Shown here: one piece after another, positions 30,941 through 31,078 of the stretch
Numbering within the stretch: the first letter of the stretch is position 1
Layout: the number at the start of each line of letters is the position of its first letter
DNA from: Novacetimonas maltaceti
GTDB taxonomy: Bacteria; Pseudomonadota; Alphaproteobacteria; Acetobacterales; Acetobacteraceae
NCBI RefSeq assembly: GCF_002906255.1
Contig: NZ_POTC01000004.1
Coordinates: 1 to 64,000, forward strand
DNA length: 64,000 bases
Direction: 5' to 3'
Position numbers and translations under genes: made by a program
The notes under the pieces: generated by a model
Database searches by the model: none
Seen by the model: only the letters and a program-made list of their open reading frames with translations
Told to the model about the DNA's origin: nothing

Positions 30941-30969
30941 TTGCAGGCACCCGGTGGGCCTGCTACACG
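30941..30969 (+). promoter_or_regulatory. Predicted promoter of tRNA-Pro
   Basis: TTGCAG (30941-30946), a 17-bp spacer and TACACG (30964-30969). Expected transcription start is near 30976, that is, at the left edge of the 12-bp inverted repeat flanking the tRNA. Confidence 0.45.
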
Positions 30970-30976
30970 ATGCGTC

Positions 30977-31078
30977 ATCGCAGACAGGCGGGCAGTAGCG
31001 CAGCCTGGTAGCGCATCAGTCTGGGGGACTGGGGGTCGTGGGTTCGAATCCCGCCTGCCCGATATCCCTGTCTGCGAT
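30977..31078 (+). repeat. 12-bp perfect inverted repeat enclosing tRNA-Pro
   Basis: ATCGCAGACAGG (30977-30988) directly abuts the tRNA 5' end; its exact complement CCTGTCTGCGAT (31067-31078) lies 4 nt after the discriminator base. Pairing would extend the acceptor stem by 12 bp with a small 3' bulge. AAAAAC follows. No function is established. Confidence 0.85.
30989..31062 (+). tRNA. tRNA-Pro (anticodon GGG)
   Basis: A 74-nt cloverleaf. Acceptor stem CGGGCAG pairs with CTGCCCG (31055-31061), discriminator A at 31062, no encoded CCA. D-arm 'GCGCAGCCTGGTAGCGC', anticodon stem TCAGT/ACTGG with loop CTGGGGG (31021-31027; anticodon GGG at 31023-31025), and T-loop 'GGTTCGAATCC'. It decodes CCC and CCU. 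Confidence 0.95.

What the first reader, a model, noticed from the sequence alone, without database searches (positions are those of the whole stretch)
30977..31078. tRNA-Pro(GGG) precursor clamped by a 12-bp perfect inverted repeat
ATCGCAGACAGG abuts the tRNA 5' end and its exact complement lies 4 nt after the discriminator base. A predicted promoter (TTGCAG-17-TACACG) would start transcription almost exactly at the left arm, so the primary transcript would fold into a tRNA with a doubled acceptor stem. The other tRNA in the window, Leu-UAG, has no such arms. Possible roles: a processing signal for RNase III or RNase P, protection or maturation control, or a DNA cruciform/attachment site.
Basis: partly seen in the sequence, partly recalled or inferred. 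Interest (0 to 1): 0.58.

Follow-up and report, generated by a model that had tools for sequence, protein, structure and literature searches.

The report
Paired-end clamp on tRNA precursors
In vinegar bacteria, a proline tRNA and a few other tRNAs appear to be made with extra ends that zip together into a short double helix, which related species keep paired even as the letters change; what the helix does for tRNA maturation is still untested.

Summary
In detail: a perfect 12-bp inverted repeat (30977-30988 / 31067-31078) flanks tRNA-Pro(GGG). Alone it is weak evidence, since comparable repeats occur elsewhere in the window; its position and conservation make it real. The window lies in the acetic acid bacterium genus Novacetimonas. 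In related acetic acid bacteria the arms differ in sequence but stay complementary. The same kind of helix, with compensatory changes, flanks tRNA-Val(GAC) and tRNA-Met, and in single lineages Pro(UGG), Lys(CUU), Ser(CGA) and Pro(CGG). For Pro(GGG) the arm usually begins 7-8 nt after a conserved -10 element and moves with it, so arm and transcript leader are probably the same thing and the feature acts in RNA. A non-acetic Acetobacteraceae genome and the three E. coli proline tRNAs lack it. Most likely it is a leader-trailer helix that clamps the precursor ends and must be opened before RNase P acts, plausibly by RNase III; that step is inferred. A terminator substitute and a link to CCA encoding were tested and rejected; an attachment site or cruciform is disfavoured. 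Replication template switching may have helped perfect the arms. My searches of open papers found no description of it.

The parts
30941..30946 (+). -35-like hexamer TTGCAG
   Evidence: TTGC conserved upstream of the gene in most relatives
30961..30969 (+). extended -10-like element TGC TACACG
   Evidence: TGCTA(A/C)A conserved in relatives
30977..30988 (+). left arm = presumed whole 5' leader of the precursor, from predicted +1 (A30977) to position -1
   Evidence: 32 of 43 helix-bearing Pro(GGG) genes have the arm starting 7-8 nt after the -10 hexamer
30989..31062 (+). tRNA-Pro(GGG), no encoded CCA
   Evidence: ARAGORN; Rfam RF00005 60.3 bits
31063..31066 (+). TATC, unpaired 3' bulge (with A31062) between acceptor stem and leader-trailer helix
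31067..31078 (+). right arm = proximal 3' trailer, reverse complement of the left arm
   Evidence: covarying in relatives

Best explanation
The two arms are the 5' leader and proximal 3' trailer of the pre-tRNA. They form a leader-trailer helix of about 9-13 bp that closes the precursor beyond the acceptor stem, leaving the discriminator base plus UAUC (or CCA) as a one-sided bulge. It is an RNA-level maturation element used by a subset of tRNA genes in acetic acid bacteria. It locks both single-stranded extensions into a duplex that cannot invade the tRNA fold and hides the leader and 3' end from RNase P and exonucleases. A nuclease then opens it, most plausibly RNase III cutting the duplex as in rRNA leader-trailer helices, or an endonuclease cutting in the bulge, after which RNase P, trimming and CCA addition finish the ends. 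Shown: the inverted repeat, its covariation in three isoacceptor families, the coupling of arm start to the promoter-like element, and presence of RNase III genes. Inferred: formation in vivo, the start site itself, the delay of RNase P, and the identity of the opener (about 0.35 for RNase III).
For: Contiguous Watson-Crick runs of 8 or more occur in 38 of 59 Pro(GGG), 17 of 30 Val(GAC) and 11 of 28 Met flanks, against about 0.3% with shuffled leaders. The Val(GAC) helix has a covariation score of 0.437 against 0.213 (sd 0.022) in shuffles, 0 of 500 as high; slid registers that keep relatedness give 0.045-0.225, and RNAalifold finds 7 helix pairs with two-sided changes on its own. Whole tRNA sets: helices at -16 or better in 4 of 45, 5 of 46 and 4 of 45 genes of three genomes, against 0.09, 0 and 0.34 expected from mismatched partners. 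The control genome G104 has 0 of 49, expected 0.51. Arm start and promoter move together: r 0.70, 33 distinct arm pairs. Real arms keep the Pro(GGG) acceptor stem formed at 0.99 where shuffled extensions average 0.41. Pairing of leader with RCCA inhibits E. coli RNase P (PMC9433436, abstract and passages). RNase III is over cut-off in 38 of 38 genomes.
Against: No transcript ends or nuclease data. G.U pairs, the usual mark of an RNA rather than a DNA constraint, are not enriched over A.C mismatches (5 against 5; 2 G.U and 0 A.C among all interior pairs). The folding benefit is not seen for Val (55 of 100 shuffles as good) or Met (23 of 100), and helix-bearing tRNAs are not intrinsically worse folders (p 0.38). 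RNAalifold on the MAFFT alignment of Pro(GGG) did not recover the helix; arm length varies and the alignment lost register. Several acetic acid bacteria have no good helix on this gene (19 of 59 below a run of 7), so it is dispensable. A 12-bp helix is short for RNase III (recalled).
Confidence: 0.55

Rival explanations
1. Mutational origin: the arms are a quasi-palindrome kept perfect by template switching during replication, with little or no selection on the RNA.
For: Very few imperfect pairs (531 Watson-Crick, 2 G.U and 6 other among interior pairs) and no excess of G.U over A.C. Template switching is reported to create and maintain perfect RNA stems (PMC8794818, abstract and passages).
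Against: Complementarity begins at the predicted start site and shifts with the promoter, recurs at three isoacceptor families with similar geometry, and is absent in a related genome with the same tRNAs. A replication process has no reason to respect the start site.
Confidence: 0.15
2. The helix is mainly a folding insulator: it stops extensions from invading the tRNA, independent of any particular nuclease, as argued for the 16S leader-trailer helix.
For: Pro(GGG) 0.99 against 0.41 and Pro(UGG) 0.99 against 0.38 acceptor pairing with real against shuffled extensions. The 16S helix is needed for 30S formation independent of RNase III (PMC10250234, passages).
Against: No clear advantage for Val(GAC) or Met, two of the three conserved cases.
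Confidence: 0.2
3. The helix replaces a missing intrinsic terminator or acts as a 3' exonuclease barrier.
For: No strong terminator directly after the arm in this window; a few armless relatives have a terminator right behind the tRNA (L032, L087, L095).
Against: No association: Fisher p 1.0 for 58 Pro(GGG) genes and 0.77 for all tRNAs of three genomes; Komagataeibacter species have the helix and a terminator-like hairpin some 15-25 nt later.
Confidence: 0.04
4. DNA element: attachment site of an integrated element or a cruciform.
For: It is an inverted repeat next to a tRNA gene.
Against: Sequence changes freely while complementarity is kept; no integrase among the neighbouring genes examined (YceD, PlsX, FabH, IHF-type, MerR, AI-2E transporter families); the same arrangement at Val and Met loci; the arms are 78 nt apart.
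Confidence: 0.03

Closest known systems
Bacterial rRNA leader-trailer helices (16S, 23S) cut by RNase III
   Same: Complementary flanks of a stable RNA form a helix that closes the precursor; variable sequence, covarying (PMC10250234, passages read).
   Different: The 16S helix is 25-40 bp; here 9-13 bp, around a single tRNA, and cleavage by RNase III is not shown.
E. coli pre-tRNAs with leader N(-1)N(-2) paired to RCCA
   Same: Acceptor stem extended by leader pairing, which inhibits RNase P (PMC9433436, abstract and passages).
   Different: Two base pairs with the mature 3' end there; here a full extra helix with the trailer, and in this gene the discriminator and UAUC are bulged out.
Eukaryotic pre-tRNA leader-trailer pairing (recalled, from no call)
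   Same: Leader pairs with trailer beyond the acceptor stem.
   Different: Different polymerase, La protein and processing enzymes.

Membership tests
Leader-trailer helix of a stable-RNA precursor | Flanking sequences complementary and adjacent to the mature RNA | tested here: met
   12 bp perfect; about 9-13 bp in relatives
Leader-trailer helix of a stable-RNA precursor | Compensatory changes in relatives | tested here: met
   Val(GAC); distinct arm pairs with a run of 8 or more: Pro 13, Val 10, Met 10. The strand-specific G.U test was uninformative
Leader-trailer helix of a stable-RNA precursor | Both arms lie in one transcript | tested here: inconclusive
   Conserved promoter-like element placed so that transcription would start at the arm; no RNA data available to me
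RNase III processing site | Cleavage on both strands by RNase III | not testable with these tools
   Only the presence of the enzyme gene was tested: 38 of 38 genomes over cut-off
Intrinsic terminator | GC-rich hairpin followed at once by a T run | tested here: not met
   Right arm followed by AAAAACTTTCC; no association with terminators
Integrase attachment site | Direct repeat of the tRNA 3' end with an integrase gene nearby | tested here: not met
   Neighbours are YceD, PlsX, FabH, IHF-type, MerR and AI-2E transporter families; the only other match in the genome is 24 bases inside the tRNA body on another contig
Quasi-palindrome kept by template switching | Arms homogenised without regard to transcript boundaries | tested here: inconclusive
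   Perfect pairing fits; coupling of arm start to the promoter does not

The most novel reading that the evidence does not exclude
Acetic acid bacteria mature a subset of tRNAs by an rRNA-like route: the whole leader pairs with the trailer from the first transcribed nucleotide, RNase III rather than RNase P or RNase Z makes the first cuts, and RNase P acts second. This would fit that none of 38 genomes has a protein over the cut-off of one RNase Z model (TIGR02651).
Probability: 0.2. Interest if true: 0.75.

Novelty: new variant of a known kind. Interest (0 to 1): 0.52.

Why it matters
Bacterial tRNA leaders are usually treated as short, unstructured sequence that RNase P removes. A conserved helix from the first transcribed base to the trailer, in a defined set of isoacceptors of one clade, would force the order of processing and would make it testable whether double-strand cutting can start tRNA maturation. 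It also gives a natural series of with-helix and without-helix orthologues in which to ask when precursor ends need structure.

Tried and rejected
Terminator substitute: rejected. Link to missing CCA: rejected, because CCA-encoding orthologues (for example L016, L025, L035, L036) and Val(GAC) and Met carry the helix too. Intrinsically poor folders: rejected (p 0.38). Strand test by G.U against A.C: uninformative. RNAalifold on the Pro(GGG) alignment did not find the helix, so I counted runs on unaligned flanks instead. Longer-range pairing in helix-poor Acetobacter species was not clearly better than shuffles (7-18% as good in L177, L203, L211 and L246), but Endobacter (L197, 15 pairs, 0 of 200) and Pseudoroseomonas (L176, 12 pairs, 3 of 200) have a displaced helix. 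The RNase Z search gave only partial hits under the cut-off in 38 of 38 genomes, while 9 of 14 control genomes pass; the E. coli-type model was not tried. The plasmid search found matches of 10-13% of the query, lying over the tRNA.

Rows dropped before counts: of 150 family genomes with a DNA match, 115 GGG flanks were in hand, 114 distinct and used; the rest were not fetched. In some searches I chose the acetic-acid-type loci myself from those fetched; some species occur twice through two collections, and helix-poor rows were left out of the promoter-spacing counts. ARAGORN and flank filters kept 45, 46 and 45 genes from 45, 48 and 46 Rfam matches.

Full report
What is there. The window belongs to the acetic acid bacterium genus Novacetimonas (Acetobacteraceae): a same-genus genome's tRNA contig (G003:C363, 32,487 bases) has the length of the N. 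hansenii JCM 7643 contig carrying the same gene and the same flanks (taxonomy). tRNA-Pro(GGG) at 30989-31062 stands alone between a MerR-family gene (after YceD, PlsX, FabH and IHF-type genes) and a convergent AI-2E-transporter-family gene. It has no encoded CCA. Its flanks are a perfect 12-bp inverted repeat, 30977-30988 and 31067-31078. 0 of 20,000 shuffles of the flanks reach 12 pairs, but perfect 12-bp repeats with similar spacers occur at two other places among the 25 longest listed for the window, so the repeat alone proves little.

Conservation. In 114 distinct tRNA-Pro(GGG) flanks from the family, 28 have leader-trailer duplex energy of -16 kcal/mol or better against 2.3% of shuffled leaders. 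Among named organisms the paired ones are Komagataeibacter, Novacetimonas, Gluconacetobacter, Nguyenibacter, Asaia, Swaminathania, Ameyamaea, Tanticharoenia, Neokomagataea, Saccharibacter and some Acetobacter. Roseomonas-like genera, Acidocella and Acidiphilium mostly carry a different acceptor stem (CGGAGCG), an encoded CCA and no arms. Arm sequences include ATCGCAGACAGG, GTCGCAGACGGA, ACCGCAGGAC, CCGCGAGACGG and CCAAATGAA, each with its own complement. In the acetic-acid-type set that I chose, 38 of 59 have 8 or more contiguous Watson-Crick pairs, against 0.27% with shuffled leaders; 19 of 59 have fewer than 7. One same-genus relative (L003) has one uncompensated change.

It is not one gene. 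All tRNAs of the own genome show the same for Val(GAC) (12 bp), Met and Pro(UGG). Helices at -16 or better: 4 of 45, 5 of 46 and 4 of 45 genes, expected 0.09, 0 and 0.34; in the non-acetic family member G104 0 of 49, expected 0.51. The Val(GAC) alignment of 30 sequences has a covariation score above all 500 shuffles and well above slid registers. Met covaries by inspection and run counts. Outside the family, 3 of 26 Val(GAC) flanks are also paired (L462, L465, L480), so the trait is wider than one family or arose more than once. E. coli proK, proL and proM have none.

Why RNA. For Pro(GGG), 32 of 43 helices begin 7-8 nt after the last base of the -10 element (36 of 43 within 6-9), 37 of 43 begin with a purine and 40 of 43 are preceded by a pyrimidine. 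Spacing between promoter and tRNA tracks arm length (r 0.70, Spearman 0.75, 33 distinct arm pairs; not corrected for relatedness). The relation is looser for Val (4-11 nt) and tight at 9-11 nt for Met. So the arm appears to be the entire leader. Against this, the G.U test that would show the transcribed strand gave no signal, and the near-perfect pairing could have been polished by template switching (PMC8794818, abstract and passages only).

What it does. Tested and rejected: terminator substitute and CCA dependence. Partly supported: protection of the fold against the extensions, for the two proline tRNAs only. Expected from published work: pairing of the leader with the 3' end slows RNase P in E. 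coli (PMC9433436, abstract and passages), so a 12-bp clamp should have to be opened first. RNase III is present in 38 of 38 genomes and opens the analogous rRNA helices (PMC10250234, passages), although that paper argues the 16S helix also works independent of RNase III. RNase III action in Gluconobacter is presumed by others for 23S rRNA fragmentation (PMC6191907, passages). One RNase Z model finds no protein over its cut-off in 38 genomes, which I regard as a hint only.

Known or new. Searches of open papers (leader, trailer, pre-tRNA, extended acceptor stem, inverted repeat with RNase III, proline tRNA with RNase E, template switching, acetic acid bacteria with tRNA processing) gave listings in which I saw no description of leader-trailer helices in bacterial tRNA precursors; most subscription papers are not in that library. 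I file it as a new variant of a known kind, the stable-RNA leader-trailer helix.

Noticed in passing
window 30989-31062: tRNA-Pro(GGG) lacks an encoded CCA, one of only two such tRNAs among 45 in this genome; orthologues in Neokomagataea, Saccharibacter and others encode CCA.
   Followed up: partly
L054 (own genome): The other CCA-less gene is a CAU-anticodon tRNA followed by GGCCCTG; not examined further.
   Followed up: no
L175, L176: Skermanella and Pseudoroseomonas carry a CCA-less CGGGCAG-type tRNA-Pro(GGG); the Pseudoroseomonas copy has a displaced 12-pair leader-trailer helix, which could mean horizontal transfer of the gene.
   Followed up: partly
L197 (Endobacter medicaginis): Displaced leader-trailer helix of 15 pairs with 4-nt and 15-nt gaps on the two sides; 0 of 200 shuffles as good.
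   Followed up: partly
38 acetic acid bacteria and near relatives (genome handles): No protein over the cut-off of RNase Z model TIGR02651; only partial, weak hits.
   Followed up: partly
L305, L309, L312: In some species the Val(GAC) leader pairs with the encoded CCA itself, putting the mature 3' end inside the helix.
   Followed up: no
L204, L206, L238: MAGs labelled Asaia bogorensis or Solirubrobacterales carry a non-acetic Acetobacteraceae-type tRNA-Pro; the labels look wrong or the bins mixed.
   Followed up: no
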